Shown here: positions 11,995-31,093 of the stretch, piece by piece
Layout of the letters: every line of letters starts with the position of its first letter
How positions within the stretch are numbered: the first letter of the stretch is position 1
Notes under the pieces: generated by a model
Told to the model about the DNA's origin: nothing
What the model saw: only the letters and a program-made list of their open reading frames with translations
Databases searched by the model: none
Position numbers and translations under genes: made by a program
From: Chitinophagaceae bacterium
GTDB taxonomy: Bacteria > Bacteroidota > Bacteroidia > Chitinophagales > Chitinophagaceae
Reading direction: 5' to 3'
NCBI GenBank assembly: GCA_027486835.1
Contig: JAIXOJ010000101.1
Location: 1-39,617, forward strand
DNA: 39,617 nucleotides

Positions 11995-14900
11995 TTATTC
12001 CACAGCAAGCGTGGTAGTAGCTACCACCTGTTGAGTGGCGGCTGACTGTACGCTGATGTTGTAAATACCTGCTGCTAGTTTGCTCGATGTAGTGATGGTT
12101 TGTGCGGCATTGGCACCGCTATGGCGAATGATTGATTCCTGCACTTTTTGGCCAAGGCTATTGTATAAGCTTACCACATATTTGCCCACAGCAACTTCAT
12201 TTCCTATACTAACTGCTAGCGTTTTACCCACTAACGGGTTAGGATAAATATTCAGTTTAGTAGGTACCAGTATAGCATTGTCGGCCATAGTTGCCGCTTT
12301 AAACACAATCGTAAAGCGGTTAGTATAAGTAGCAGCTTTGGCCGCATCCACTTGGAAAGAGATTTGGTTTTCCCCTGCTTTTAAAGTAGTGGTAGTATTG
12401 GTATAAGCATCCACCAAATTAGCCGTTAAACCATTTGCTTGGAAGGCCGAAGCATCTATTTGTAAAGCATAGGTGTTAGTGGTCATTTTCTCAAGGCTCA
12501 AAGGCAATACATCACCAGCTTTTGCAGGTTGGCGACCTTCGATACTCAACAATTGACCACCATTAAGGAAGGATAGGTTTTCGCCATTGTTGGTCATTTT
12601 TTTAGCATCCTCAGCACGAACCTCATTGCTGAAATGACTATCAAAAACTACCACTGATGCGTCCATCTTTTTCCAATCTGCATCAGTTTGTTTCATCAAA
12701 TCGATGGCCAATTTGCTGTTAGAAACGGTTGCTCCAAAAACAGAAGTTTTGGTAGAAGCAATGGCTTTATCAGCCTCAGTGATGGTAAGGGTAGGAGAGG
12801 TGCTGGCATTGTTTTGAACAAACACCGCTTGTCCAGCTTGTATGTATCGCGCACCAGCAGCCAAATTACTCGCTACGTTGGTCAAGGCATTGTAAGCCAC
12901 ATAAGCACCAGCAGAACCAATGGTAGGGTCTAGGTAGTAGTAAGACGGAAGTAGATTCACCGCACGACCATTGTCGTAAATATTCTTCCAATCGATAGGC
13001 GCCACATAAGGGTTAGCTATTAAGCTGAAACCATCATTAGTAGCACTATTTAATCCGAAAGAAGCATTATTATAAGTAGAACCAACCCCTGAATTGGTAA
13101 CCCCAGTTTTGCTATAAACTACATTTCCAGTTACAAGCTTACCTGTTGCACGCAAGGCAGTAGCGTTAAACATTAATAAAGCACCAGATGTACCAACGGT
13201 GGAGATAGGCGAAGTAAAAAGGTTGAAAGACCGATCACCACGCACCAATAAACGGTATCCTGCAAATGGATTTAAGTCCGTTGATTTTGTATTGTCGATG
13301 GAATTCCATGTACCGCTGGTGTAGGTGTAAGCAGATTTAATTCTATTTAAGGTTTGGTCTAAACCTGTGGTTGCATCAACACCATGGTTGGCATTGGAAG
13401 TGGTGGTACCCGTAATAAAGAGACCATATCCTGCTTTAGCATAGCTACCGCCTTCTTGCCAGTTGTTGAAAATGCTACCAGCATTAAATACTTGTGGCGC
13501 AAAGTCGCGATAAGCACGATAAGCCTTTGGTACAAATCTTTCTACCGTTACATTGCCAGTGATAGCGGCACTAGCACCTACAGGAGCTACCACTGCCGAG
13601 TTGACGATAGAAGTTGATTTTAGCGTTAAACGATTGGCAGTATTCAATGTACCTGCGGATAGGTTTAGCTGAGAAACGATACCAAGACCGCTACCCAAAG
13701 TAACCGTACCTGTTCCAGACAAGGTTAAACTAGCCAATAAACTATCGTTGCCCGAACCAAAATTTAAGGTGTTATTCAATGAACTATTAACGATTAAAGC
13801 AGAAGTAGCCGAACCTCTTAACTTACCTGAACCATTGATTGCACCTGTAATAGTGAGCTTCTTACCGTTTAAAGAAAGATTACCATCTAACTGAATGTTT
13901 GCAACGGTTAAATCGCTTCCCAAAATAGGTTGTCTTACTGGATTTGAAGGGATGGTAATATCATTTGAACTATTGGGTACAGTGTTACCCGCCCAGTTAC
14001 CTGCGGTAGACCAAGCATTATTAACAGCACCTGTCCAAACAATACCCCCAGATTTATTGATGGTAAACGTGTAAGTTTTAGTGGTTGTACCATCTTGTGC
14101 AGTCACTAATACTGTAATGGTATTGCTTCCCACATTCAAACTAATTGGACTACTTGCAGCACCGCTAATCACGGTAGTGCCGTTCACTAGAATGGTAGCA
14201 TTCGCTTCATTTACTGTTGGCGTAACTGTAATTGTATTGTAAGCTACACCAACAGATGTAGTATAAGCAGTGGTGTTTGCAGCAAAAGCTGGACTATAAG
14301 AACCGCTACTCAATGTTAAGCTAGCAAGAGTTGCATCTGTAGAAGGTGCTCTGTTTACAGTTATGGTGTAAGTAGAGGTTGAAGTGCCATCGGGTGCAGT
14401 TACTAAGACTGTTATTGTGTTGTTGCCCACATTTAATGCAATTGCATTGCTAGCACTGCCTCTTGCAACAGTAGTACCATTCACTCTCGTTACAGATGTT
14501 GTTTGATTGGAGGTAGGGGTTACGGTAATGCTACTAATAGCATTGCTTACACTAGCAGTATAGCTTGTAGTAGTATTTACAAAGCTTGGGCTTAATGTAC
14601 CACTGCTGATGGTTAATGCAGAAAGGGTAGCATCAGTGGTAGCTGCTGCTCTGGTAACAACTACAGAATATGTTTTTGTGGTTGTTCCATCTTGTGCAGT
14701 TACAAAAACATTAATTGTATTGTTTCCTACAACGAACCCTCCATTTAAGTTAGTTGACTCAGAACCACTAGCTACTGTTTGGAAAGTACCAGCAGCCAAC
14801 TTCGCTTGAATAGTGGCATTCGCTTGACTAGCAGTTGGGGTAACTCTAATGCTTGAAACAATAAAAGGAACGCTAGCCGTATAGCTGGTAGTGCTACTAG

Positions 14901-17900
14901 AAAATGCTGGGCTTAAAGTACCGCTATTAAGACTTAGGGCAGATAGGTTAGCATCGGATGATGCAACGGTGATATTAAGGGTATATGTGCTAGTTCCAGA
15001 ACCATTCACTGCTGTTACCACATAATTGGTAGCGGGAGATAGCGCTGTTGGTGTACCACTGATTACTCCAGTTAAAGTATCGAAGCTTAAGCCAGTAGGT
15101 AGAGCAGGACTGATGCTATATTTTCCAACAAGACTTATTTTTCTTATAGTATTTGTAGCATCACTAAAATAAACATCACCATTTTGTGCAACTGCTGTTG
15201 ATGATGGAAAATGTAGATTTGAAATGGACAAAGCACCATCTGCACCACCCGCAGTACCATTTCCTCCAATAGTGCTTACTAAGCCACCTGCAGTCACTTT
15301 TCTAATACGATTACTTAAATAATCAGCCACATACATATTGCCATTTGCATCGATAGAGATACCCTGTGGTGAAGCAAACTGAGCTGCTGTACCTTGGCCG
15401 TCTGCAAATGCTGATGCACTTCCTCCTGCAAGAGTTGATGTTACACCTGCTGGGGTTATTTTACGAACACACCATCCAGAATTTTCTGTAGCAAATACAT
15501 TACCACTAGCATCAACAGTAACACCTGTAGGGTAATTGAACGAAGCTCCTGTTCCTGTTCCGTTCACAGTGGCTGCCGTTCCGCTACCTGCTAATACAGA
15601 TACAACACCAGCAGGAGTTACTTTTTTAATACTATGCGCCCATTGGTCAGCAACATATAAATTTCCATTTGCGTCAATTGCAATGCCATAAGCTCTAGAA
15701 AACCCAGTAGCTAATGTCGTTACAACACCAGCAGGGGTAATTTTTCTAATAGCATTAACCGCATCAACAACATACAAATTGCCACTTGCATCTATAGTGA
15801 TACCTGTAGGTCCATTGAAAGTAGCACTAAGTCCTGTACCATTAGTTGACCCAGCAGTACCACTTCCAGCAAAAGTGGAAACAACACCACCTGGTGTTAT
15901 TTTCCGTATTACATTATTACGGTTATCAGACACGAAAATATTTCCAGATGCGTCGGTTACCATTCCATAAGGCCCATAAAAAGTAGCTGAAGATGCAGCA
16001 CCATTGATATATGTGGATTGGTAAGAAACACCAGCAACTGTAGATACTTCAAAACCAATTGGACCACCTGCATTGGTAGGTGTAAGGCTTGTTATTGCTG
16101 TATTTACTTTATAAACTTTATTGCCTGCGGTGTAAGTAATGGATGGAGCAGCAACTGATCTCACTACAAAAACTGTATAGGTTTGAGTTGTATTGTCTTG
16201 AGAGGTTACCAATATTGTAAATGTATTGTTGCTACCTACAGTTAATGATAATGGACTACTAGCTGTACCGCTTGTTACTGACACATTATTCACTTTCACT
16301 GTTGCATTTGCCTGATTTACTGTTGGTGTAACTGTTACTGTTGAATTTGCATTGGGTACATATAGATAGTATTTTAAGTTACTAGCCGTGAAAGTTGTGT
16401 TCAGTGTACCTGCACTGAATGTTAATGCCGAAAGGGTTGCATCTGTTGAACGTCTTGTAACTGCTACAGTATAATTTTTTGTTGTTATTCCATCTTGTGC
16501 TGTAACAGTGGTGGTGATGGTATTAACACCTACATTAAGGTTAATGGTGTTGCTTGGATTTGCACTAGTTACAGGTGCTCCATTGACTGTAACAGTAGCA
16601 TCAGCTTGATTAACAGTTGGTGAAATAGCAATTCCTGTAGTGCCGTTTGATACGCTTACTGTATAGGAAAGAGTTGATGCTGAAAATGTTGGTGATAAGG
16701 TTCCTGTGCTTGGCACTAATGCAGAAAGGGTAGCGTCTGTTGAAGCAGCAGCATTTCTGGTTACCGAAAGTGTATAAGTTTTAGTAGCTCCACTTGCAGC
16801 AGTTACAACCACTGTAATTGTATTTGCACCCAAACTCAATGGGATGGTGCTGCTGGCACTTCCACTTGTTACGGTGGTGCCGTTTACGGTAACAGTAGAA
16901 GTATTGTCTTCACATGTTGGTGTCACAGTAACGCTTGTTGTTGGGTCAAAAACGGTTGCTGTGTAAGAAGTAGTAACGGGATATACAAATGGTCTAATTG
17001 TACCCGAAGAGATAGATAATGAAGAAAGATTAGCATTGCTATTACAAGATCCGCTTATTTGTGTAAATGCATTTCTTTGTGTTGCAGTTCCATCACCAAG
17101 TTGCCCATTATCGTTTAATCCTGCTGCCCACAGGCTGTTGTTAGATTGAATGCCCACTGTAAAGTACATGTTAGCACCAAAAGCAGATTTCCATGTAGCA
17201 CTTCCAATTTGAACGGGTGTTGTTCTAGTGGTAGTCGTGCCATCGCCAAGTTGTCCTTTAGAATTTTCACCCCATGCCCATAATGTGCCATCAGTTTTCA
17301 CCGCTACAGATTGAGTATAGCCTGCTGCGATTGAAGAATAGGTTGCAGTACCAATTTGGGCAGGAGTACTTCTATTGGTCGTGTTTCCATTGCCTAATTG
17401 ATTCAAAAAATTACCTCCCCAACCCCATAAAGTATTATCTGTTTTTGTGGCCAAAACATGGTACCATCCTGAACTGATAGCAGCCCAATTGGCAGCGGTT
17501 CCTATTTGAGTAGGGGTGAATTTATCAACGGTGGTTCCGTCACCTAATTGCGAATTGCCATTATTTCCCCAAGCCCATAAAGTGCCATCAGTTTTTAAAG
17601 CAACTGAGTGTATTATGCCTGCTGAAACTGTTTTCCAGTTTCGTGCAGTACCAATTTGTACAGGATAGTATTGTACGTTGGTTGTGCCGTCGCCAAGCTG
17701 GTAATTTGAGTTTTGACCCCAAGCCCATAAAGTGCCATCTGTTTTTACAGCCAAAGTAAAATTGTTGCCCTCTGATACCTCCGCCCAATTGGAAGAAGTA
17801 CCAATTTGAGTTGGAGACGACATAGAAGCTCCTGAACCTCCAGCACCTAGCCCTAATTGACCATAAAAACTATTGCCCCAACCCCAAAGTGTACCATCAG

Positions 17901-18198
17901 CTTTTATTGCCATGGTAGTGTTGTTGCCCGCTGCAATAGATACCCAATTATTGCCAGTACCTATGCGGGTAGGCGTGTTCACACTGGTTGTATTACCCAG
18001 TCCCAATTGACCACTGTTATTAAGCCCCCAGCTCCATAATGAACCATCCGACTTTAAAGCGATTGTATGTGCTTGACCAACAGCAATTTTAGTAAAACAC
18101 TGTGCCTTTATTATGAAAGGCAGAAACAAAATAAACATGAAGAGGGTGAAATTCTTAATCATCCCTCTTTTTAAAACATTGAGTAAGCTTCTTTGCAT
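11995..18198 (-). CDS. Giant secreted protein: RCC1, cadherin-like and NHL repeats, T9SS tail
   Basis: 2067 aa, secreted and probably surface-bound. An N-terminal signal peptide (hydrophobic core [17 protein letters not shown]) precedes seven RCC1 repeats of about 50 aa (34-385, each with TLWxWG and QLGxGT). Then come three cadherin-like beta-sandwich repeats (PF12733 type, beginning DATLSAL) and a propeller of NHL repeats (GIxxDAxGNxYVAD...IRKITPAG, roughly 690-1010). These are followed by a putative-Ig segment ([18 protein letters not shown]), three more cadherin-like repeats, a beta-rich [15 protein letters not shown] segment, and a C-terminal type A T9SS sorting domain ([11 protein letters not shown] to the end). 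An in-frame ATG at 18162 (MIKNF) would give a more typical signal peptide. It is a single gene. Adhesion or exposed interaction is a plausible role, but no ligand can be named. Confidence 0.9.
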
Positions 18199-21707: not shown

Positions 21708-23750
21708 TTAACTAAAAATATTGCTTCCTATTGCCACTGGGGCATATACTTTGGCTTCCCAAGGGAAAATCTTTTCAGCTTTTATATCATCCACAATTCT
21801 GCTTTGGGTTATTTCCGCCCAATGATGACCTCTGGGCAAACTAGGCATGTTGTTGACCCTGTAACTACTGTTTGGTGCTGATCCCCAACTTGAAAAATTG
21901 GCCACGGTTACCACAATGTCGTTGCCGAGTCCCCGTTTCCATGCCATCACTCTTTTCCCGTCGTTAAAATCACTGTGTATGAATTCAATATAATCTTCCC
22001 AAAGCGCGGGCGATGTGGTGCGCAGGTGTATCAAGCGCCTTACGTGGACCAAAAGGGATTGCCGCCAAGGGTGGTTCGCTAACCGCTGAAAATTGACAGG
22101 GTCATTTTGTTTACCATGATCATCAAACAAATCTTGTTCGTCTGCGAATTCTTCGCCCGACAAAATCATGGGTATGCCCACGGCGGTCATCAAGCAGCAG
22201 AAAGCCAGTTTAATCCTGGGCAGTGTGTCTTTTACGCCGTTGTTGTTCAAGTAATTGAAAATCCTTTCATTTTCCCTCCCCCCGACATCATGCGAGGTAA
22301 TGTAGTTGATGGCTTTTGCACCGTTGGTAAACCCCCGACCCAACAGGCGGCAGTCGATTAATTTTTTCACACTCCATTCAAAACTGGCATCTATCCAACT
22401 GTTTTTTCCCAGTATAACCTGCCGCAAGATTTGCTTGAACACTTCGTTCCATTGCCCATCCACCCGATTTTGCTCCAATAAAGAGGCAGGTACAGAAAGC
22501 TCTTCCGCAACCACAATGTATTTGTTGTCTTGTGCTGATGTTATATCCTTGAAGAACTGTCTGGTTTCTTGGGTTACCTCGCTTAAAAAGTCATAGCAAT
22601 CTATGTTTACCACGCTGTCCAATCTCAATCCGGAAACTCCTTTGTTTTGTATCCATTCATTCAAGTGTGCTTTCATGTACTCCCTAGCGGGCGAAATCCA
22701 TTCGTTTCTGCCGGAGTTTGGGTTGTAGGTGTTTACATAATACCTGTATTTCACTAAATCGCCACCAAATCCATCCCTGTTCCCCTGTTCAGGGTCGTTT
22801 GATTTGTGTTTGATGAAAAAATCAGCGTAATTGATGTGTCTGTAGGAATTTTCCAACGAAAAAGCCATCACGGCATCATAGAAAAAACGAATACCAGTTT
22901 TGTGGCAGGCTTTCACTAGGTCTATCAAATCGGTGGCAGAGTAGGGCAAGTTTTCGCTGGCGCTCACGCTAAAGACATAATCGGGTGCCAAATAATGGGA
23001 AGTGCCATAGCCCCAATCAAATTCCTTGACGCTATTTGCTGGCGGGGTTAGCTCAAGGGCATTGACACCTAGATAAGCGATATACTTTTTGTTTCCAGAT
23101 AGCAGATTGCCCAAGATGGAATCTAGGTAAGTATTATTGTCTGGCGAATCGATCATTTTTTGAACCTGCCGGAAGTTGCCGTTGGCAACCGTAACTTGAT
23201 TATTGGAATCCAAGAAAGACCAACGCGGGGGCAACTCATAAATCACCAATTGATTGTTCGGCTTCAAGGCATCCAAAACCTGAGCGGTAAACAAATTTCC
23301 CCAATCGGGTACGGTTCCGTCGGCATTGGAAGGCAGCAACCTTTGTCCGTCGTATTTGAGCACACTTGACGGGGAATAATGCGATTGCACCGTGTTTGTA
23401 TAAGGCAAATGTCTGGCCTGCACCCTTTCGTCAACTACAGTGGCAAAAGGATCGGTGCAGTACAAGATGTGTGAATTGTTTTCGTATGAATTGCTGTTCT
23501 CGACCTTGAACCAATAATGGTACACTTCATCGCGTTTCAGCCTACATTCACTAGCGGCTATCAGCCAAACATCCTTCAACTCCGTTGATGGTGTCAACGG
23601 AAAAGCACCCACGTAGGTAAGTGATGGCGACACGTTTTCTCCAACGCGCTGGCTAAACGTTACTTGGGCAATAAAAACCTCTGGCGGTGGAGTGGATTTC
23701 CCTGGTCTCCAAAGCACGAAATGACTACTTCTTAGCTCATGAATATTCAT
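21708..23750 (-). CDS. GH13 (alpha-amylase superfamily) enzyme with N-terminal CBM48-like domain
   Basis: 680 aa from the ATG at 23750, no signal peptide, so probably a cytoplasmic alpha-glucan enzyme. Residues about 5-115 form a beta-sandwich like CBM48/branching-enzyme N-domains. The barrel starts near LVIYELPPRWSF. Catalytic motifs: GLRLDSVVNI (nucleophile, Asp378), YIVVAEEL (acid/base, Glu416, in the AEE context of branching enzymes) and NYITSHDVGG (transition-state stabiliser, Asp488). Region I, usually DVVxNH, reads DAVMAFS, so the conserved Asn-His is missing. DWGYGTSHYLAPDYVF recalls branching and debranching enzymes. The exact activity cannot be told. A terminator-like hairpin sits 38 bp before the start. 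No other glycogen genes are adjacent. Confidence 0.82.
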   Translation of the reverse strand: MNIHELRSSHFVLWRPGKSTPPPEVFIAQVTFSQRVGENVSPSLTYVGAFPLTPSTELKDVWLIAASECRLKRDEVYHYWFKVENSNSYENNSHILYCTDPFATVVDERVQARHLPYTNTVQSHYSPSSVLKYDGQRLLPSNADGTVPDWGNLFTAQVLDALKPNNQLVIYELPPRWSFLDSNNQVTVANGNFRQVQKMIDSPDNNTYLDSILGNLLSGNKKYIAYLGVNALELTPPANSVKEFDWGYGTSHYLAPDYVFSVSASENLPYSATDLIDLVKACHKTGIRFFYDAVMAFSLENSYRHINYADFFIKHKSNDPEQGNRDGFGGDLVKYRYYVNTYNPNSGRNEWISPAREYMKAHLNEWIQNKGVSGLRLDSVVNIDCYDFLSEVTQETRQFFKDITSAQDNKYIVVAEELSVPASLLEQNRVDGQWNEVFKQILRQVILGKNSWIDASFEWSVKKLIDCRLLGRGFTNGAKAINYITSHDVGGRENERIFNYLNNNGVKDTLPRIKLAFCCLMTAVGIPMILSGEEFADEQDLFDDHGKQNDPVNFQRLANHPWRQSLLVHVRRLIHLRTTSPALWEDYIEFIHSDFNDGKRVMAWKRGLGNDIVVTVANFSSWGSAPNSSYRVNNMPSLPRGHHWAEITQSRIVDDIKAEKIFPWEAKVYAPVAIGSNIFS

Positions 23751-23787
23751 AATTATCAACAATTATTTTCTAGTGATTACGAAAAAG

Positions 23788-24016: not shown

Positions 24017-24069
24017 TTGTAAACCATAATCAGCGGAATTTGCAACGAAAGCCCTATAAAAACCAATAC

Positions 24070-24492
24070 TTATATCTTAGAAGGCAAAGACGACTTAGCC
24101 CCCCTTTTTATACTTTCTTCAATTTGTTCTTGACTTGGTTGTCTTGGGGTAAATGTATCCTGACCTACCAGTGTGGAATGCCAATCGTTTTGCGGATTTG
24201 TTTCTTGGGTTAAAAGCCAGGTTGTTACAATAGTAGGAACACCATTAATTACTTGATATTGTCCGCTCCATGCGGTTACAGAGTCTAAACTAGTATATTG
24301 GTTTTGCCAAACAACTATCCAACCTACTGCTTGACTTGCATCGTTATCGGTGTCTGTTAGCCCAACTAGATTGAACGTTCCATAGGCACTTCCTGTGCCT
24401 GTTCTGTAGGTGCCAGTAATGGTGTTACCATTTGTTTGAATGGTCATTTCTGAACCCAATTCATTGTACCAAGTGCCATTTAAATTTGCCAT
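24070..24492 (-). CDS. Avidin/streptavidin-family biotin-binding protein, copy 1
   Basis: A 140-aa protein that is one avidin domain plus a 24-residue tail. Biotin contacts of streptavidin are found in register: Asn10 (N23), Ser14 (S27), Tyr29 (Y43), Thr31 (S45; avidin itself has Thr), Trp62 (W79), Ser71 (S88), Thr73 (T90), Trp75 (W92), Trp92 (W108), Trp104 (W120) and Asp112 (D128). Retained Trp104 suggests a tetramer of the streptavidin type rather than a rhizavidin-like dimer. Unlike secreted avidins there is no signal peptide: in-frame stops (TAG TAA) directly precede the ATG. The tail (QEQIEESIKRGAKSSLPSKI) is charged and unrelated to known sorting domains. Copy 2 differs at four residues. 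Tight biotin binding is predicted from the residues; the biological role is unknown. Confidence 0.93.
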   Translation of the reverse strand: MANLNGTWYNELGSEMTIQTNGNTITGTYRTGTGSAYGTFNLVGLTDTDNDASQAVGWIVVWQNQYTSLDSVTAWSGQYQVINGVPTIVTTWLLTQETNPQNDWHSTLVGQDTFTPRQPSQEQIEESIKRGAKSSLPSKI

Positions 24493-24655
24493 TTTTTTAC
24501 TATTTTATGAGTGAAAAGTTGTTTTTAGATTTTTTTTTGTGAGTTTGATTTATGGTATAGGTACAATTCATACTAAAACAACGATTAACTGGTGTTGGTC
24601 AAACGCATAGACATAGTTTTGAAAATAACCTAAACAGGAACTTAATTTTTCAATC

Positions 24656-25441
24656 CTATATTTTATTTTTCAATTGCTTATTCAATAAATTCCTATCAAA
24701 TGCAATATTGGCATCTGAATCTGGGGTTCTACCTGTGTATATCCACCCAGGAATGTCAATATTGCCTTTTTGATACATGATTTTACGATATCTGTACCCA
24801 TTGTTAGTATCATAAATACTATCGAAAAGCACTTGAACGCGCTGGCCTGGCACCAGCACGTCATTATTTTTACATATACTTATATTATTTAACAAAAAGG
24901 CCCAAAAACCTGCAGTTGGTTTACAAGATGAAACCCATTCGTTGTACAAGATAGTAGCATTTGGAGAAAATAATTGTGGCATATTACCTTCCCCTAGGTA
25001 ATTGGCATAAATTACTTCAACTTGTTTATTACAATAAGGGGATTTTTGAATATTGTATGAATTGGTAAACTCATTTTGTTTAATTTTATTACTTATAGTT
25101 ATATTTTGACTATCCTTACCAGTATTTGGAGAAAGAGAGAGCAGTGACAAAACTGAACACCCCCTAATAAAAGCATCTACCTTGTTGCTTGGTGTATATA
25201 TCCAGCAAATAATATACCCAAACAATATCACAAATAACATTACGCAAAACCTCAACGCTGCATAACTTGTTTTTGCTATAAACAAAGCATCTCCCAAACG
25301 TTCTGTAGTGTTCTGAATAGTGCCTCCTTTACCTAAAACTAGGCAACTAAATAAAGAAACTACTGCTCCTATAAGACCTGCGAAATAAATAGGTACCATT
25401 GCTATTTGGGTATTCCCAGTTGAATTATTATTGTTTGGCAT
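24656..25441 (-). CDS. Membrane protein with C-terminal SH3-like segment, between the two avidin genes
   Basis: 261 aa, no family recognised for the whole. The N-terminus (MPNNNNSTGNTQ) is polar. Two or three hydrophobic segments follow (IAMVPIYFAGLIGAVVSLFS, ALRFCVMLFVILFGYIICWI, and a weaker one near residue 95). The remaining 150 residues are soluble, contain four Cys, and end in GQRVQVLFDSIYDTN...IDIPGWIYTGRTPD, a pattern like bacterial SH3 domains where GWIY/GWV precedes the last strand. It is co-oriented with both avidin genes, 163 bp before copy 1 and 308 bp after copy 2. Because the avidin duplication flanks it, it may be part of the same functional unit. Confidence 0.7.
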   Translation of the reverse strand: MPNNNNSTGNTQIAMVPIYFAGLIGAVVSLFSCLVLGKGGTIQNTTERLGDALFIAKTSYAALRFCVMLFVILFGYIICWIYTPSNKVDAFIRGCSVLSLLSLSPNTGKDSQNITISNKIKQNEFTNSYNIQKSPYCNKQVEVIYANYLGEGNMPQLFSPNATILYNEWVSSCKPTAGFWAFLLNNISICKNNDVLVPGQRVQVLFDSIYDTNNGYRYRKIMYQKGNIDIPGWIYTGRTPDSDANIAFDRNLLNKQLKNKI

Positions 25442-25749
25442 TCTTTAATATTTAATATTAATTTATTTTTCTCGCCTACTCGCAATTCTTGATTTCAGCT
25501 TTCCGTATTTTAATTACTTTTTAAAAACAATTCTACAAATAATTTATCTTCCATATGAAATGGAGTTTGATGCTATGGTCATGTGTAAAACCACCTTTAA
25601 TTCGGCTAACTATTTCTTTTCTAGTAAAAAATTGTAATTCAGACTAGTATAAAGTTGTTATGTTGGTTGAATTGCAGTGAAAATCCCGACCAGCGGTGAT
25701 TTCACTGCAAACATTTCTTTTAAACGAAAACATAGCAATAACACAATAC
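25442..25749. other. Gap after avidin copy 2 with a hairpin
   Basis: The 308-bp gap contains the inverted repeat TTGCAGTGAAA(A)TC / GATTTCACTGCAA (25672-25685 with 25698-25710) about 40 bp past the avidin stop. There is no T-run, so termination is uncertain. Nothing else was recognised. Confidence 0.5.
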
Positions 25750-26172
25750 TTATATCTTAGACGGCAAAGACGACTTAGCCCCCCTTTTAATACTGTCTTC
25801 AATTTGTTCTTGACTTGGTTGTCTTGGGGTAAATGTATCCTGACCTACTAGCGTGGAATGCCAATCGTTTTGCGGATTTGTTTCTTGGGTTAAAAGCCAG
25901 GTTGTTACAATAGTAGGAACACCATTTATTACTTGAAATTGCCCGCTCCATGCCGTTACAGAGTCTAAACTAGTATATTGGTTTTGCCAAACAACTATCC
26001 AACCTACTGCCTGGCTTGCGTCGTTATCGGTGTCTGTTAGCCCAACTAGATTGAACTTTCCATAGGCGCTTCCTGTGCCTGTTATGTAGGTGCCAGTAAT
26101 GGTGTTACCATTTGTTTGAATGGTCATTTCTGAACCCAATTCATTGTACCAAGTGCCATTTAAATTTGCCAT
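25750..26172 (-). CDS. Avidin/streptavidin-family biotin-binding protein, copy 2
   Basis: 140 aa, identical to copy 1 except I30 for R, K39 for T, F79 for Y and D126 for E. None of these changes a predicted biotin contact. The frame stays open 41 codons further upstream (to 26295), but that stretch is basic, not a signal peptide, and absent from copy 1, so the ATG at 26172 is chosen. About 130 bp upstream of both copies share blocks (GAAAAGTTGTTTT, GTGAGTTTGATTTA, GACATAGTTT), meaning that the duplication included the control region. The gene follows the secreted 281-aa gene on the same strand by 194 bp. Confidence 0.93.
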   Translation of the reverse strand: MANLNGTWYNELGSEMTIQTNGNTITGTYITGTGSAYGKFNLVGLTDTDNDASQAVGWIVVWQNQYTSLDSVTAWSGQFQVINGVPTIVTTWLLTQETNPQNDWHSTLVGQDTFTPRQPSQEQIEDSIKRGAKSSLPSKI

Positions 26173-26256
26173 TTTATTTAATCTATGATTGAAAAGTTGT
26201 TTTGAAAATTTATTTTGTTTGTGAGTTTGATTTACGGAATACTTGCGAAGTGTAAT

Positions 26257-26280
26257 GGAAAACTCCAAACGGGAGTTTCG
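26257..26280 (-). terminator. Weak hairpin between the 281-aa gene and avidin copy 2
   Basis: AAACTCC / GGGAGTTT with a 4-nt loop is followed on the minus strand by a short T-run. It is absent from the region upstream of avidin copy 1. It may partly separate the avidin gene from the upstream genes. Confidence 0.35.
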
Positions 26281-26366
26281 CAAACGCGATGACATAGTTT
26301 AGAAACAACACCCAATTGAGGCGGCGAACATCAGTAAAAGCAGTAATCCGTATAAAAAAATAAAAA

Positions 26367-27212
26367 CTAATATTTGAGAATTATAGCTATATTGTAATCT
26401 CTTTTTTCAGAAAGCTTTTCACCTTCTTGAGTAAACTTTTGTATACCAATTAAAGGAAATTTCGTATTTACATCATCAATAAAATATTTATAATAGTCGT
26501 CTTGGTTTTGTTTTGGAATATCAACGAGTCTGTTTGGATCTCTATTTTCTTTTATATCTTTAGCCAAAATAACTTTGTAGGAATTAATTAAAAGGACAGC
26601 CCTTTTATTTTTATTTCTTAAATTCATAAAGGCATCTTTTATACATTGAAGTTGACTCTCAAATCCATCTGGATACACAAAATGACCATTTTTATTATCT
26701 TCCTTTACATATTCAATGTAAATAAGAATCGAATTTTTATAATACTTTTTATTTTTAAAAATATAGGTTTTCTCTCTTAAATTATCTATGTTAAAAAAAC
26801 AATCTTTATCTCCTTCGGGCACTTTATTCCCATCGACATTTCCAAGGCGAAGCTTATCAATAATTTGTTGCAATGAATCACATCGGTTCTCCAGTACTAA
26901 TATTCTTAGAGAAAGAGAATCAATTCTACGATCAGTAAAGTTTTTATATAAAATAGATGCATTAAATAAAATATCGGACACAATTTTTAAAGAATCTAAA
27001 TTATTTTTAGTATTATAATTCTGAATTGAATCTGTTCTGTGAATCTTTACTAGACTATCTTTCTCTTTTTGAATTTTTAACAATGACTCTCCCAAATTCC
27101 GGATGCTGTCCTTAATATGTAATGCCTTATTAAGTATTACATTATCAGGCTGAGAATATGAATTTTTCGCTAATGTCATTAATGACAAAATAATTAAAGT
27201 AATTAACCTCAT
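26367..27212 (-). CDS. Secreted coiled-coil protein of unknown function
   Basis: 281 aa. The signal peptide (MRLITLIILSLMTLAKNSYS) is followed by about 110 residues of heptad-like helix rich in Asp, Ser and Lys (repeated DSL / DSI motifs). The C-terminal domain has alternating strands and helices (IYIEYVKEDNKNGHFVYPD, KRAVLLINSYKVILAK, YNIAIILKY). No family recognised. Only 4 nt separate its ATG from the stop of the membrane-protein gene upstream, so the two are almost certainly co-transcribed and may act together across the inner membrane: one anchored, one periplasmic. Confidence 0.7.
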   Translation of the reverse strand: MRLITLIILSLMTLAKNSYSQPDNVILNKALHIKDSIRNLGESLLKIQKEKDSLVKIHRTDSIQNYNTKNNLDSLKIVSDILFNASILYKNFTDRRIDSLSLRILVLENRCDSLQQIIDKLRLGNVDGNKVPEGDKDCFFNIDNLREKTYIFKNKKYYKNSILIYIEYVKEDNKNGHFVYPDGFESQLQCIKDAFMNLRNKNKRAVLLINSYKVILAKDIKENRDPNRLVDIPKQNQDDYYKYFIDDVNTKFPLIGIQKFTQEGEKLSEKRDYNIAIILKY

Positions 27213-27216
27213 AGGT

Positions 27217-28158
27217 TTATAATTTTTTTTCCATTGAAATTAAACTGTCTAGGCATTTTCGATTCCAAATATTTTTATCACCAACTTTAAAACTTGGGAT
27301 ATTTAAAAAATATTTAAACATAGATGTATCTAATTCACTTGCCAAATTCTGTTGTCTTTTATTTTCATATTGGTGGGTAACCCAATATCTTATTCTCTGT
27401 TTAATTTTGAGTCTAATAGATTCAGTTAAATTGACATAAAGATTTGTTATACTATCTTCTTTGCTATATTCATTAGATCCAATCGTAGAATTAAAGGATA
27501 ATTTTGGGTTACTAAAATCTGGAACTGTTTTATTTTTATTTTCTTTTGTAATAGTATCATACACTTTTATAGTATCATAAAATATTATAGTGTCACTAAT
27601 ATGTAAATGACTATACACTTTGTAAGCTGGTTTTCCAGTCATAAAATATTTCAATATTGAGGTTGGAAAAAACTTCAAAAAGCAAATTGCAAAAGCTAAT
27701 CCAATTATAAAAGGCCAAGCAATTGAGAGTTTAGGATATTTTAGAACGTACTTTATCCAATAATGACTAAATGCCCATTTATTATTCATTACACCTAATT
27801 CTTCAATACTCTTATCATTTGAATTTTCAGAAGATGAATCTCTAGCTTTAGTATCTTCTTTTGTTTCATCTTTAGTTTGCAGAAGATTTCTAATTTTTAA
27901 ATCAGACTCAATTCGAATCAGTAAATTTTTAATTTTATCTATAATTTTTCCTAAATTACCTTTATAAACATTGCTTGTCTTTAAAGTATTACTATTAATT
28001 AAATCAAAATAGTCAGACTTCATGTTTAAAGCCTCTTCATTAAGATTACTCTGATTGTGATGAGAAGTAAAACGTATTACTTTTTCAAGAACATCACTAA
28101 TCTTTTCTTCGTTTAAGAGATTATTTATTTCGATTTTAAAAGCCTCAAAATTTATCAT
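27217..28158 (-). CDS. Single-pass membrane protein with effector-associated-domain-like N-terminus
   Basis: 313 aa from the ATG at 28158 (a GTG at 28194 is in frame). Residues 1-85 are helical, with a pattern of short leading helix, NEEKISDVLEKVI, a middle SDYFDLI helix and a final KIIDKIKNLLIRIES helix. This resembles the effector-associated domain group (EAD11-like) that wires effectors in Bacteroidota conflict systems; the match is by eye only. A Ser/Asp/Lys linker, one transmembrane helix (LSIAWPFIIGLAFAICFLKF) and a C-terminal region of about 150 residues with DTIIFYDTIKVYDTI repeats follow. It overlaps a likely operon: 50 nt after the 305-aa gene and 4 nt before the secreted 281-aa gene. 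Confidence 0.6.
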   Translation of the reverse strand: MINFEAFKIEINNLLNEEKISDVLEKVIRFTSHHNQSNLNEEALNMKSDYFDLINSNTLKTSNVYKGNLGKIIDKIKNLLIRIESDLKIRNLLQTKDETKEDTKARDSSSENSNDKSIEELGVMNNKWAFSHYWIKYVLKYPKLSIAWPFIIGLAFAICFLKFFPTSILKYFMTGKPAYKVYSHLHISDTIIFYDTIKVYDTITKENKNKTVPDFSNPKLSFNSTIGSNEYSKEDSITNLYVNLTESIRLKIKQRIRYWVTHQYENKRQQNLASELDTSMFKYFLNIPSFKVGDKNIWNRKCLDSLISMEKKL

Positions 28159-28208
28159 AGTGTATATCCAATTAATTAAAAGAAAATAAGCCACAAAGAA
28201 TCCCCCCC

Positions 28209-29126
28209 TTAACTCGCCTTCTCCAATTCCAACTCCACTGTAATCTCTTCCTTTTCGCCATTGCGGAAGGTGATGATTTTGGTTTGGGTGATGTAGCCTT
28301 CTGCTGAGAAGGTAACATGGTAGGTGTTGGCTACAAATTCAGAAATGCTGGCCAAACCAGAGATGGTGCTGGTGGCGGTGAGGTCTAATTCTACTATTCT
28401 TACTAGTGCATCTTCGATCAATTCGTCTGTGCCGGCCTTTATAAAAGTGACTACAAAGCGGGTATGATGCACGTTTTCAGCGTAAATAAGGGCATTTTTT
28501 AGGTCTAAAATCAATTGCGGATTGGCTAGGGGGCCAGTGGTAAAACCTGCTTTCACCAGATTTTCAAAGGTTTCCTTGGCTTTTTTGGCCTTATCGAATG
28601 CTGGGAGATAAAGTGCATTAATCGTTTTTTGGGTGGCCCTTGTGGTACTAGGCGATACCTGTAGCGATTTCAATGAATCTAGCGCAGTGGTTGCTGCCTG
28701 TATTTCAACATCGGTAATATCTGTGTGGTCTGTAAGTTCTTTTTTATTAGTTTCTATTACCCCTAAAGTATATTCTGCTAATGTTGTTACATCAACAATA
28801 TTACCCCTGAAGCTAGTTGCAGTAACAGAAAAATCTTGAATGAGCTGATCGTTTTCTTTTTCCTTGGCCCATTCTAACGCTTCTAGGCACATAGCTATTA
28901 TTAACGCTACTAGTTGATTCTTAGCTTTTGTCTTGGTTTTTGTTTGCACTTTGGTGGCATGTGGCCGTTTTTTTCTAGTAATGTCGTCAATTTCTTTTAC
29001 CGAACCTTTTAGATTGTCAATTGCTTTGGGCAGTTGCTTTCTTTTCTTGAGCGTATCAAAATTGTTTTTGATAAAATTCAAAATCTGCTGAAGGATTAGA
29101 TATCTAACCACTAGTTTCTTGTTCAT
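28209..29126 (-). CDS. Helical protein with C-terminal carboxypeptidase-regulatory-like domain
   Basis: 305 aa, no signal peptide. About 225 residues are predicted helical and rich in Lys, Thr and Ala (NLKGSVKEIDDITRKK; ATTALDSLKSLQVSPS). The last 75 residues form a small beta-sandwich (DALVRIVELDLTATSTISG, NTYHVTFSAEGYITQTKII, a final EITVELELEKAS) like the CarboxypepD_reg/PEGA group, usually a structural or binding module. It is the first gene of the unit leading to the membrane protein and the secreted protein. Its ATG lies 8 bp from a 280-bp array of 7-bp repeats, which must occupy its leader or promoter. Function unknown. Confidence 0.7.
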   Translation of the reverse strand: MNKKLVVRYLILQQILNFIKNNFDTLKKRKQLPKAIDNLKGSVKEIDDITRKKRPHATKVQTKTKTKAKNQLVALIIAMCLEALEWAKEKENDQLIQDFSVTATSFRGNIVDVTTLAEYTLGVIETNKKELTDHTDITDVEIQAATTALDSLKSLQVSPSTTRATQKTINALYLPAFDKAKKAKETFENLVKAGFTTGPLANPQLILDLKNALIYAENVHHTRFVVTFIKAGTDELIEDALVRIVELDLTATSTISGLASISEFVANTYHVTFSAEGYITQTKIITFRNGEKEEITVELELEKAS

Positions 29127-29133
29127 GGGGTGT

Positions 29134-29413
29134 AAGTATTAGGTGTTAAGTAATAAGTATTAGGTGGTAAGTATTAGGTGGTAAGTATTAGGTGTTAAGT
29201 ATTAAGTATTAGGTGGTAAGAATTAAGTGTTTAGTATTAGGTGGTAAGTATTAAGTGGTAAGAATTAAGTGTTTAGTATTAGGTGGTAAGTATTAAGTGG
29301 TAAGAATTAAGTGTTTAGTAGTAGGTGGTAAGAATTAAGTGTTTAGTATTAGGTGGTAAGATTTAAGTGTTTAGTATTAGGTAGTAAGTATTAAGTGTTT
29401 AGTAATAGGTGGT
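29134..29413. repeat. Forty tandem 7-bp repeats next to a start codon
   Basis: Degenerate heptamers of the type AAGTATT, AGGTGGT, AAGTGTT, TAGTATT run without interruption for 280 bp, partly organised as 42-bp higher-order units. The array ends 8 bp from the start codon of the 305-aa gene, so unit gain or loss would change its leader or promoter spacing. A few similar heptamers occur near 9355-9390. Confidence 0.9.
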
Positions 29414-29772
29414 AGGTAATCAATTGTATGTGTTATGTAGATAATTTAGAAGTTCAACTTGGTATCTGCGGAGTTTCTTGTATCAATGTTACCCATCTTG
29501 TTTGCATGGATTGATTGTTTAGACTCCAACTATATTTTAAGCCATCTGGTGTGCCGCAAGCGGTTGCGACAATGTTATCAAGACAAATATGACCTAATAA
29601 ATGCTGCATCGGCTGCACAACAAATTTTTGCTCACTTAAAAAGGAGGTTGTGTATAACCGCCAAGTCATTTTGCATTGCTCCAATACATTGTTTGGCATC
29701 GACAAAAGATACTTGCGCATTGATAATGAACGATTAGAAATCGCCCACTTATTCTTTGAAATCGCTAACATA

Positions 29773-30036
29773 AACTTTGCTGACGCTAAGATGAACTTGG
29801 CTGACGCACGCTTAAACTTTGACGACGGTAACGTAAACTTTGCTGACACATACATAAACTTTACCGACTGAAACGAAAACTTGAGTGACACATACATGAA
29901 CTTTATCAACCTAAAAGAAAACTTAGCCGACACATACATGAACTTTGTCAACTCCAACGTGATCTTTGGCGGCAAAGACGTAAACTTGGCTGACAAACAA
30001 GAAAACTTGGCTGACAAAAACGTAAACTTGACTGGA
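29773..30036. repeat. 21-bp tandem array, 12.5 copies
   Basis: Twelve full units beginning AACTTTGCTGAC-like plus a partial one, each exactly 21 bp. Typical units are AACTTTGCTGACACATACAT and AACTTGGCTGACAAAAACGT. On the plus strand they would read as a 7-residue repeat N(L/F)AD(K/T)xx but contain an in-frame TGA at 29868-29870. On the minus strand they give KFxxxSA for the whole array inside a 221-codon frame (29454-30119). No start signal supports either frame. Confidence 0.88.
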
Positions 30037-31093
30037 TTTGACCAAACTTTGATGATCATATTACAGAACGCTACAATCCTTTGACTGAAATTTCCAGCCA
30101 GAAACAGTATTAAGGGCATAGTAATTAACTTTTTGGGTGAACAAAATATCTGAATGGCTTTGGCCTAAAGCCGATGAACATGCTATTGATTGGAAAACTT
30201 TTTTTCGCTACTACTCCACGTTTTTACTTGGAATCGTTTGGGCGTATGTATCGAAAAGTAGTCATAAACTTCCTAGAATTTTCCCCGTGCCGCTAAAATT
30301 GAAATGGGTACTCGATGCAAGTGTTTATCTCCAAAAGGAATAACGCCATTTACCAACTGATGCCTATATGCTTTCCTTAAATCTATCTCTTTTGCTAACT
30401 CTTGTTTGTACTTGACAGCAAAAAAAGAACAACTGAAAATTAAAGCAGGTCAACAACTACAAATGCAATAATTCCTATGGTGTCAAAAATAGGGGATAAA
30501 AGTATAAGCTTGTAGTTTTTTGTTGAAATTGCCCTAAAATTTTTTATACGCTTTTTTCTGGAATGTTTTTTCGAGTGTTGAATAGCCCTGTTTTTTGATG
30601 GGAGAAGCCACTAATTCACGAATGATTTGCGCTGTTTGTGGTGTTACGTGCAAGATCTCTACAGGAAAAGGCGGCTTGCATGCAACGTATCATGGGCTGA
30701 TTCGTGCTTTTGTGGTAATAATAGCGATGCGAAAAATGGTTTACATTGTGTAGCACATTCCTGCAAGAACTCAACTGCGTGTGATTTTGGGGCGGTCAAG
30801 GTTTCCTAGTTGTATAACTTTTGCGGAATTATGACCCCGCCCTTTAAGTACCCCTGGAGAGGGGGAATTGTAGCCCGAGTATTTAGAAACCGACTTGTTT
30901 ACAAAGAAGTTATATAGTAGGTAACATATCCGCTGAAAAGTATAAAAATGAACACATTCAACATTGCTGACTATGCTTAATCCTGTTGCTTTTTAATTTT
31001 CGGAAGTTTCCATCCAGCTAATTTTTCTTCGGCAATCGCTAATTTTTTGGGGAATCATACTTTGCCCTTGAATTTATTCAGCGATTGGTCAAG
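30037..31093. other. Gene-poor region with decayed sequence
   Basis: No complete gene supported. A 68-codon plus-strand frame at 30137-30343 (GTG start) has no recognisable family. A possible minus-strand pseudogene lies at 30534-30801. The rest is AT-rich and shows no copy of the window's repeats until the element at 31094. Confidence 0.5.
30534..30801 (-). pseudogene. Possible frameshifted gene fragment, family unknown
   Basis: On the minus strand one frame reads SHAVEFLQECATQCKPFFAS and, after a shift near 30665, another reads PVEILHVTPQTAQIIRELV followed by KKQGYSTLEKTFQKKAYKKF and a stop. Both parts have protein-like composition and would join into one fragment. The second part loosely recalls the linker helices of AraC-type regulators, but this is weak. 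It may be non-coding. Confidence 0.25.

What the first reader, a model, noticed from the sequence alone, without database searches (positions are those of the whole stretch)
24070..26172. Two nearly identical cytoplasmic avidins in one locus
Both 140-aa proteins keep nearly every biotin-contact residue of streptavidin in register (Asn10, Ser14, Tyr29, Trp62, Ser71, Thr73, Trp75, Trp92, Trp104, Asp112), with Thr31 at the S45 position as in avidin. Known avidins are mostly secreted. Here stop codons directly before copy 1's ATG rule out a signal peptide, so the proteins should stay inside the cell or leave by an unusual route. An intracellular tight biotin binder would compete with the cell's own biotin enzymes, which makes a conditional, defensive or storage role likely. 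The shared 24-residue charged tail is not a known sorting signal.
Basis: partly seen in the sequence, partly recalled or inferred. Interest (0 to 1): 0.82.

Follow-up and report, generated by a model that had tools for sequence, protein, structure and literature searches.

The report
Paired signal-less streptavidins with plug-like tails
A bacterium carries two near-identical copies of a biotin-grabbing protein related to streptavidin but without an export signal, and its odd tail matches the stretch of streptavidin that folds back into the biotin pocket, which suggests how such a protein might be kept harmless inside a cell.

Summary
The window encodes two 140-aa avidins (Pfam Avidin, E about 1e-27), 97% identical, with 11 streptavidin contact residues identical and Thr for Ser45. 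Neither shows a signal peptide by a hydrophobicity heuristic. Both look constrained (dN/dS about 0.10).

About half of bacterial avidins in a 118-species survey lack a predicted signal peptide (PMC8033661). The "unknown tail" aligns with streptavidin's own tail: S135-L136-P137 falls on Gly151-Asn152-Pro153, part of the segment that occupies the biotin site in full-length streptavidin (PMC5398887).

Relatives show something sharper. Signal-less streptavidin-like proteins carry Ser-His-Pro at this position in 16 of 23 tailed cases, across six phylum labels, against 0 of 9 tailed secreted ones. His-Pro is what peptide libraries yield against streptavidin, and the core of Strep-tag II. My paper searches listed no report of this natural counterpart. 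The window pair has Leu instead of His.

Best reading: a cytoplasmic biotin sink with a built-in pocket plug, probably acting after lysis or ingestion, as tamavidins do. Biotin binding, plug and role are inferred. New variant of a known kind.

The parts
24070..24492 (-). Avidin copy 1, 140 aa, no signal peptide (ATG at 24492)
   Evidence: ORF; PF01382 E 1.5e-27; contact residues; open frame of 144 codons
25750..26172 (-). Avidin copy 2, 140 aa from the ATG at 26172; frame open to an ATG at 26295, but that extension is not conserved and not hydrophobic
   Evidence: ORF; PF01382 E 2.9e-27
24073..24147 (-). C-terminal tail of copy 1 (residues 116-140), homologous to the streptavidin C-terminal tail
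   Evidence: HMMER alignment to streptavidin runs to query residue 136; profile alignment reaches streptavidin P153
25753..25827 (-). C-terminal tail of copy 2 (residues 116-140)
24082..24093 (-). Copy 1 residues S134-S135-L136-P137, in the columns of streptavidin N150-G151-N152-P153 (the pocket plug)
   Evidence: MAFFT; HMM; plug residues from PMC5398887 passages
25762..25773 (-). Copy 2 residues S134-S135-L136-P137, same columns
24064..24624 (-). Duplicated unit around copy 1: coding sequence plus about 130 bases of 5' leader
   Evidence: blastn 90% over 565 columns between the two units
25744..26305 (-). Duplicated unit around copy 2
24656..25441 (-). ORF of 261 aa between the copies, hydrophobic stretches near the N-terminus by eye; no Pfam, NCBIfam or PADLOC match; relation to the avidins unknown

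Best explanation
The pair are duplicated, signal-less streptavidin-type avidins that stay in the cytoplasm and fold into biotin-binding beta-barrels. Their C-terminal tail is the signal-less group's version of streptavidin's pocket plug: the tail folds back so that a short Ser-x-Pro segment sits in the biotin pocket. Free biotin displaces the weak tethered plug, but the plug disfavours bulky ligands such as biotinylated carboxylase subunits, so the protein can be kept in the cell without stripping its own biotin enzymes. The protein pays off when the cell is eaten or lyses: the released, very stable biotin sink starves grazers or neighbours of biotin, as cytoplasmic tamavidins do in mushrooms. 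Shown by computation: family, contact residues, lack of a recognisable signal peptide, tail homology, Ser-His-Pro conservation in relatives, purifying selection. Inferred: fold, biotin binding, location, tail in pocket, selectivity, release on lysis, anti-grazer role.
For: Pfam, PDB and contact residues. No signal peptide by heuristic in either copy. Tail aligns to streptavidin's tail with S-L-P on G151-N152-P153; residues 150-153 occupy the biotin site of the same subunit in full-length streptavidin (PMC5398887 and PMC3344845 passages). Streptavidin C1's tail enters its own pocket in the apo crystal, is not seen when biotin is bound, and its authors suggest -NP- as the key sequence; the full-length protein still binds biotin at about 3 pM, so free biotin wins over that plug (PMC7924230 passages). 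In signal-less relatives the column is S-H-P in 16 of 23 tailed proteins against 0 of 9 tailed secreted ones, and in 10 of 13 tails picked to thin close kin, against at most 5 of 13 for any tripeptide in 2000 shuffles. His-Pro peptides from libraries bind the streptavidin pocket (PMC6259150 passages). Bradavidin's tail lowers affinity for large biotinylated ligands, and the authors speculate that this spares the host's carboxylases (PMC3344845 passages). Tamavidins are toxic to C. elegans, an Acanthamoeba and Drosophila, and tamavidin 1 cut two fungus-feeding nematodes to under 4% of control (PMC6238071 passages and Results). dN/dS about 0.10 between copies, binomial P 3.5e-5. The genome has bioB and birA matches over cut-off, so a cytoplasmic avidin would meet the cell's own biotin enzymes.
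Against: The window copies have Leu in place of the usual His, so their plug may be weaker or lost. Seven of 23 tailed signal-less proteins, the window pair included, lack Ser-His-Pro. The relatives lack the Gln of HPQ, and short HPQ peptides bind only weakly (millimolar for 7-mers, 37 to 72 micromolar for Strep-tags; PMC6259150, PMC3344845 passages). Tamavidin 1 is tolerated by E. coli and Ashbya, perhaps because free biotin is scarce in the cytoplasm (PMC6238071), so a plug may not be needed for tolerance. Tamavidin 1 was non-toxic to Aedes aegypti (PMC6238071 Table 1). No expression, binding or localisation data. No shared gene neighbourhood supports any role. The anti-grazer role rests on analogy with fungi, and the carboxylase-sparing idea is speculation by the bradavidin authors; bradavidin's plug is intersubunit and streptavidin's intrasubunit.
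Confidence: 0.4

Rival explanations
1. Intracellular biotin buffer or store: the protein soaks up surplus biotin and the tail sets a working affinity that allows release.
For: No signal peptide; plug-type tail that might lower effective affinity; the cell has bioB.
Against: Avidin-type off-rates are very slow (general knowledge, no call) and main contacts are intact; streptavidin C1 with its tail still binds biotin at about 3 pM (PMC7924230); the family is absent from the 98 other genomes searched, which does not suit a housekeeping store.
Confidence: 0.15
2. Intracellular immunity to biotin-like antimetabolites such as acidomycin made by competitors, by soaking them up in the cytoplasm.
For: Streptavidin binds and neutralises acidomycin and is proposed as a self-resistance factor (PMC13336041 abstract and passages). 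Patchy distribution would suit a resistance gene.
Against: No biotin-antimetabolite genes recognised among the window proteins scanned; no data on uptake of such compounds here.
Confidence: 0.15
3. Anti-phage or abortive-infection role: biotin sequestration on infection starves the cell.
For: An AbiU-like AIPR protein lies about 16 kb away in the window; relatives lie beside Cas9 (Flavivirga L006), about 0.6 kb from a TIR effector-like ORF (Janthinobacterium L007) and about 0.9 kb from an AAA ATPase with an IetA match (Nitrospirota L009).
Against: These neighbours are not shared between loci; no PADLOC match for copy 1; tamavidin 1 was not toxic to producers (PMC6238071). Lack of hits in phages and viral contigs is neutral.
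Confidence: 0.06
4. Exported without a classical signal (type VI, vesicles or leakage) to act as an extracellular antibiotic protein like streptavidin.
For: Related to a secreted antibiotic protein.
Against: No sorting domain found by Pfam; the tail is explained by homology to the streptavidin tail; the 22 proteins on that side of the tree are all signal-less by my heuristic labels. Secretion systems of the genome were not searched.
Confidence: 0.08
5. The proteins no longer bind biotin and serve another ligand.
For: Positions V47, N49 and A86 are Thr33, Ser35 and Leu69 here; Leu in the plug suggests drift.
Against: Eleven contact residues identical in both copies; purifying selection.
Confidence: 0.07

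Closest known systems
Streptavidin (S. avidinii; secreted; NCBIfam NF047623; PDB 1STP, 2BC3)
   Same: 56 of 139 aligned residues identical, 11 contact residues, tail homologous up to P153
   Different: Streptavidin has a signal peptide and G-N-P in the tail; the window pair has none and has S-L-P; NF047623 scores 107.9 and 107.6 against a cut-off of 300
Signal-less streptavidin-like proteins of Flavivirga, Nitrospirota, Streptomyces and others (found here; I know no name for the group)
   Same: No signal peptide by heuristic, similar length, same tail frame; Flavivirga homologue 65% identical
   Different: S-H-P at the plug position in 16 of 21 other tailed ones; window has S-L-P. In one search, 10 of 11 genomes with the signal-less type had one copy (one of them partial); G829 had two divergent copies on different contigs, not a near-identical pair
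Tamavidin 1 and 2 (Pleurotus cornucopiae)
   Same: Called cytoplasmic biotin-binding proteins (PMC6238071 passages)
   Different: Fungal; sequence not compared here
Streptavidin C1, bradavidin and hoefavidin
   Different: Other plug sequences; bradavidin's plug goes to a neighbouring subunit and bradavidin has a signal peptide
Strep-tag, Strep-tag II and HPQ peptides
   Same: His-Pro core that binds the streptavidin biotin pocket (PMC3344845 table, PMC6259150 passages); relatives here end in FSHP, WSHP, VSHPM
   Different: Artificial; relatives here lack the Gln of HPQ; the window pair lacks the His

Membership tests
Avidin family (PF01382) | Match above the curated Pfam cut-off over the whole domain | tested here: met
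   96.7 and 95.8 bits against 24, profile 1-116 of 116
Avidin family (PF01382) | Biotin-contact residues of streptavidin conserved | tested here: met
   11 identical plus T31 for S45; V47, N49 and A86 positions differ
Avidin family (PF01382) | Eight-stranded beta-barrel fold | not testable with these tools
   Structure prediction switched off
Avidin family (PF01382) | High-affinity biotin binding | not testable with these tools
   Needs purified protein
Streptavidin (NCBIfam equivalog NF047623) | Score above the equivalog cut-off | tested here: not met
   107.9 and 107.6 bits against 300
Streptavidin (NCBIfam equivalog NF047623) | N-terminal signal peptide | tested here: not met
   heuristic for both copies; SignalP not available
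Streptavidin-type C-terminal pocket plug | Tail homologous to streptavidin's tail up to P153 | tested here: met
Streptavidin-type C-terminal pocket plug | Plug tripeptide S-H-P usual in the signal-less group | tested here: not met
   S-L-P in both copies; S-H-P in 16 of 23 tailed signal-less proteins
Streptavidin-type C-terminal pocket plug | Tail sits in the biotin pocket of the apo protein | not testable with these tools
   Needs a structure
Cytoplasmic anti-predator avidin (tamavidin type) | Cytoplasmic location | tested here: inconclusive
   No signal peptide by heuristic, but location not measured
Cytoplasmic anti-predator avidin (tamavidin type) | Harms grazers by biotin depletion, spares producer | not testable with these tools
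   Needs feeding assay

The most novel reading that the evidence does not exclude
There is a widespread, undescribed group of cytoplasmic streptavidins (eight phylum labels here, one of them an archaeal MAG) whose C-terminus is typically a natural Strep-tag: a Ser-His-Pro self-ligand, seen in six of those labels, that gates the biotin pocket so that the protein can live inside a biotin-using cell. Secreted streptavidin of Actinomycetota arose from (or gave rise to) this group in one switch, in which the signal peptide was gained (or lost) and the plug changed between His-Pro and Asn-Pro or other forms. The window lineage duplicated the gene and has Leu in place of the His, which would change its gate.
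Probability: 0.35. Interest if true: 0.7.

Novelty: new variant of a known kind. Interest (0 to 1): 0.5.

Why it matters
What bacterial avidins are for is an open question, and about half of them have no predicted export signal. A conserved self-ligand in the signal-less form gives a concrete, testable idea of how a cell tolerates one. It would also mean that the His-Pro motif found in random peptide libraries against streptavidin has a natural counterpart in the same protein family, and it would supply new tag and receptor pairs.

Tried and rejected
Viral or phage origin: no match in 50,697 phage records or in two viral-contig scans, the second with alignment A2. Conserved operon: flanking ORFs of 12 relatives were listed and 29 of them, plus one window protein, were scanned with Pfam at E up to 1e-4; nothing is shared, and most Streptomyces flanking ORFs of my simple caller look like wrong-frame ORFs. 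Defence system: copy 1 and nine other window proteins gave one PADLOC match, the alpha-amylase-type enzyme to GlgB. Bacteroidota-type -33/-7 promoter pattern (recalled consensus): one match in the window, far from the avidins, against 4.95 expected. Secretion through copy 2's upstream start: not hydrophobic and not conserved. Assembly artefact for the duplication: different downstream flanks, 15 substitutions in the coding sequence, about 101 of 142 remaining duplicated-unit columns identical. The first script to read loci missed minus-strand genes and was repeated on both strands. The first tree with distant rows had weak deep forks and needs 3 changes of the signal label (bootstrap 3-4); the second left out L005, L030, L060, L061, L062 and needs 1. 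The Fisher test (P 0.0008) treats related proteins as independent and should not be taken at face value. Plasmid-borne avidins of Rhizobium, Xanthomonas and most Burkholderia records were not put into the tail counts; from the plasmid hits only L004 and L005 were used.
Full report
What is there. Two 140-aa reading frames on the minus strand, 24070-24492 and 25750-26172, match Pfam Avidin over its full length with E about 1e-27. They are the only such hits in the window's own assembly of 6.4 Mb. The 60 PDB sequences shown, of 178 matched, are named streptavidin. This is far beyond chance.

The host. The phylum is inferred: a locus from a Bacteroidetes MAG (L012, genome G823) has the same contig place and score as a hit in G447, which the tool calls same class as the window. 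Nothing was found out about its habitat.

The duplication. The copies differ at 15 of 423 bases: 11 synonymous and 4 non-synonymous codons, with 93 synonymous and 327 non-synonymous sites. dS is 0.129 and dN 0.012, ratio 0.096; the binomial P for so few non-synonymous changes is 3.5e-5. Both copies therefore look maintained. The duplicated unit is about 562 bases and includes about 130 bases of leader; outside the coding part about 101 of 142 columns are identical. The leader diverges faster than synonymous sites, which could reflect gene conversion of the coding part; I did not test that. A 261-aa reading frame without family match lies between the copies.

No signal peptide. Copy 1's open frame is 144 codons, four more than the protein. 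Copy 2's frame is open for 41 more codons, but the stretch is not hydrophobic, and indels break the correspondence with copy 1. The test is a hydrophobicity and start-codon heuristic, not SignalP.

Distribution. The family is rare. Counts include the centre genome each time: 1 of 99 relatives, with 0 of 12 sampled congeners; 2 of 395 in the class; 1 of 395 in the phylum; 2 of 299 in the family of Flavivirga; 2 of 245 in the family of Janthinobacterium; 2 of 148 in the phylum of a Nitrospirota MAG; 8 of 295 in the genus of a Streptomyces. Samples overlap in part. The window genome (6.4 Mb) is larger than its 12 congeners (3.4-5.3 Mb, some incomplete). Horizontal gain is likely but was not tested.

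Relatives. One genome-contig scan found 27 loci among 72 pattern matches. The query alignment held 4 proteins, and the two DNA patterns came from the core, so the tail was not selected for; relatives without those core patterns were missed. Signal-less relatives carry the labels Bacteroidota, Nitrospirota, Acidobacteriota, Pseudomonadota, Planctomycetota, Chloroflexota, Actinomycetota and, for a Methanoperedens MAG, Methanobacteriota. Several are MAGs, so contamination is possible. The closest named relative is Flavivirga jejuensis, 65%.

The tail. The HMMER alignment of the window protein to streptavidin continues through the tail to residue 136. A profile of 21 signal-less proteins places its Ser-His-Pro consensus on the Gly-Asn-Pro of streptavidin, and a MAFFT alignment gives the same columns: N150 G151 N152 P153 against S134 S135 L136 P137. 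Residues 150-153 occupy the biotin site of the same subunit in full-length streptavidin (PMC5398887 and PMC3344845 passages; the primary paper of 2006 was not read). Streptavidin C1 and hoefavidin also have pocket-binding tails (PMC7924230 passages; PMC5398887 passages). For C1 the authors suggest -NP- as the key sequence, yet full-length C1 binds biotin at about 3 pM, like streptavidin.

Ser-His-Pro. Of 41 proteins examined, five were dropped as duplicates (L012, L023, L024, L025, L026), leaving 36. L031, L032 and L057 are partial and were not used; L033-L050 refetch known genes. Of the 36, I labelled 24 signal-less and 12 signal-bearing; L017 (a hydrophobic stretch 67 codons upstream) and L027 (one with no start before it) were counted as signal-less. 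Ser-His-Pro occurs in 16 of 24 signal-less proteins (16 of 23 with a streptavidin-type tail; L061 has none) and in 0 of 12 with a signal (0 of 9 with such a tail; L005, L060 and L062 lack it by my judgement). Signal-less exceptions: both window copies (SLP), L010 (SHH), L017 (SRP), L028 (PSP), L030 (RHP, odd tail), L051 (SGL). The 16 fall in six phylum labels: Bacteroidota, Nitrospirota, Pseudomonadota, Planctomycetota, Actinomycetota and the archaeal MAG; the Acidobacteriota and Chloroflexota members lack it. Five of the nine tailed secreted proteins have Ala/Gly-Asn-Pro. In 13 tails that I picked to thin close kin (three of them actinobacterial), Ser-His-Pro is in 10, while the commonest tripeptide in 2000 shuffles reached at most 5. 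Between the core and the motif the tails vary strongly.

Why His-Pro matters. Peptide libraries against streptavidin converge on His-Pro, mostly His-Pro-Gln, one class on HP(Q/M), and one class has no consensus; the linear peptide FSHPQNT and Strep-tag II (WSHPQFEK) bind the biotin pocket, weakly, with the His of HPQ peptides hydrogen-bonded to Ser88 (PMC6259150 passages; PMC3344845 table). Natural tails here read FSHPASK, FSHPRKL, FSHPIQ, PWSHPAK and VSHPMPS. Ser88's equivalent is Ser71 in the window and Ser in all rows except L003 (Ala). I propose that these tails are natural His-Pro self-ligands.

Tree. With four distant proteins and L030 left out, 31 core sequences fall into three groups, each one side of a branch: 11 non-actinobacterial signal-less (99/97), 11 actinobacterial signal-less (94/92) and 9 secreted (95/91). 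On this unrooted tree the signal label needs one change. With the distant proteins kept in, it needs three and deep forks are weak. Ser-His-Pro occurs in both signal-less groups, so it is probably old; under a midpoint root the secreted streptavidins are derived, but the root is not established.

Function. Tamavidins, called cytoplasmic, are toxic to C. elegans, an Acanthamoeba and Drosophila; tamavidin 1 strongly reduced two fungus-feeding nematodes, was non-toxic to Aedes aegypti, and did not harm E. coli or Ashbya that made it, which the authors put down to lack of free cytoplasmic biotin (PMC6238071 passages and Results). If so, a plug is not strictly needed for tolerance. Bradavidin's tail lowers binding of large biotinylated ligands, and its authors speculate that this spares the host's machinery (PMC3344845 passages). 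The window genome has bioB and birA matches; no BioY was found. I therefore favour a plugged cytoplasmic biotin sink that acts after lysis or ingestion, with a biotin-antimetabolite immunity role and a biotin store as the next candidates; streptavidin neutralises acidomycin (PMC13336041 abstract and passages). Flanking genes give no consistent support to any role. The Leu in the window pair counts against a fully working plug here.

Prior reports. Paper searches listed nothing whose title or abstract start describes a Ser-His-Pro tail in signal-less avidins; the full texts of the listed papers were not read for it. The library is open-access only, and the 2021 survey's supplementary files were not read, so a prior report is possible. 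That survey's tree marks avidins with signal peptide and with C-terminal extension (PMC8033661 figure legend).

Verdict. The pair is a new variant of a known kind. The interest lies mainly in the group it belongs to. On checking, my confidence in the full mechanism was lowered from 0.42 to 0.40 because of the tamavidin tolerance result.

Noticed in passing
window 6640-8517 (-): 625-aa AIPR protein, PADLOC AbiU match E 1.1e-30: a probable abortive-infection gene in a low-GC stretch.
   Followed up: partly
window 11995-18198 (-): 2067-aa protein with RCC1 repeats, NHL repeats and six cadherin-like stretches.
   Followed up: no
window 21708-23762 (-): 684-aa alpha-amylase-type enzyme just downstream of avidin copy 1, below the cut-offs of all 19 NCBIfam models it matched.
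   Followed up: no
window 26367-30119 (-): Run of four ORFs upstream of copy 2, GC down to 28%, no Pfam family over cut-off; one has a weak carboxypeptidase regulatory-like match.
   Followed up: no
L055/L058 and L054/L059: Two Streptomyces genomes each hold two signal-bearing streptavidin genes about 36 and 48 kb apart, probably the two-streptavidin region described in PMC13336041.
   Followed up: partly
L022, L024, L025, L026: The same signal-bearing streptavidin gene lies near four contig ends of one Streptomyces assembly: terminal repeats or an assembly effect.
   Followed up: no
L006:294-4577: Cas9 gene (1428 aa) beside the Flavivirga avidin.
   Followed up: partly
L032:2316-2441: Cyanobacterial MAG locus where only the first part of the avidin matches and a short frame ends in AHPV: an apparently truncated or broken member.
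   Followed up: no
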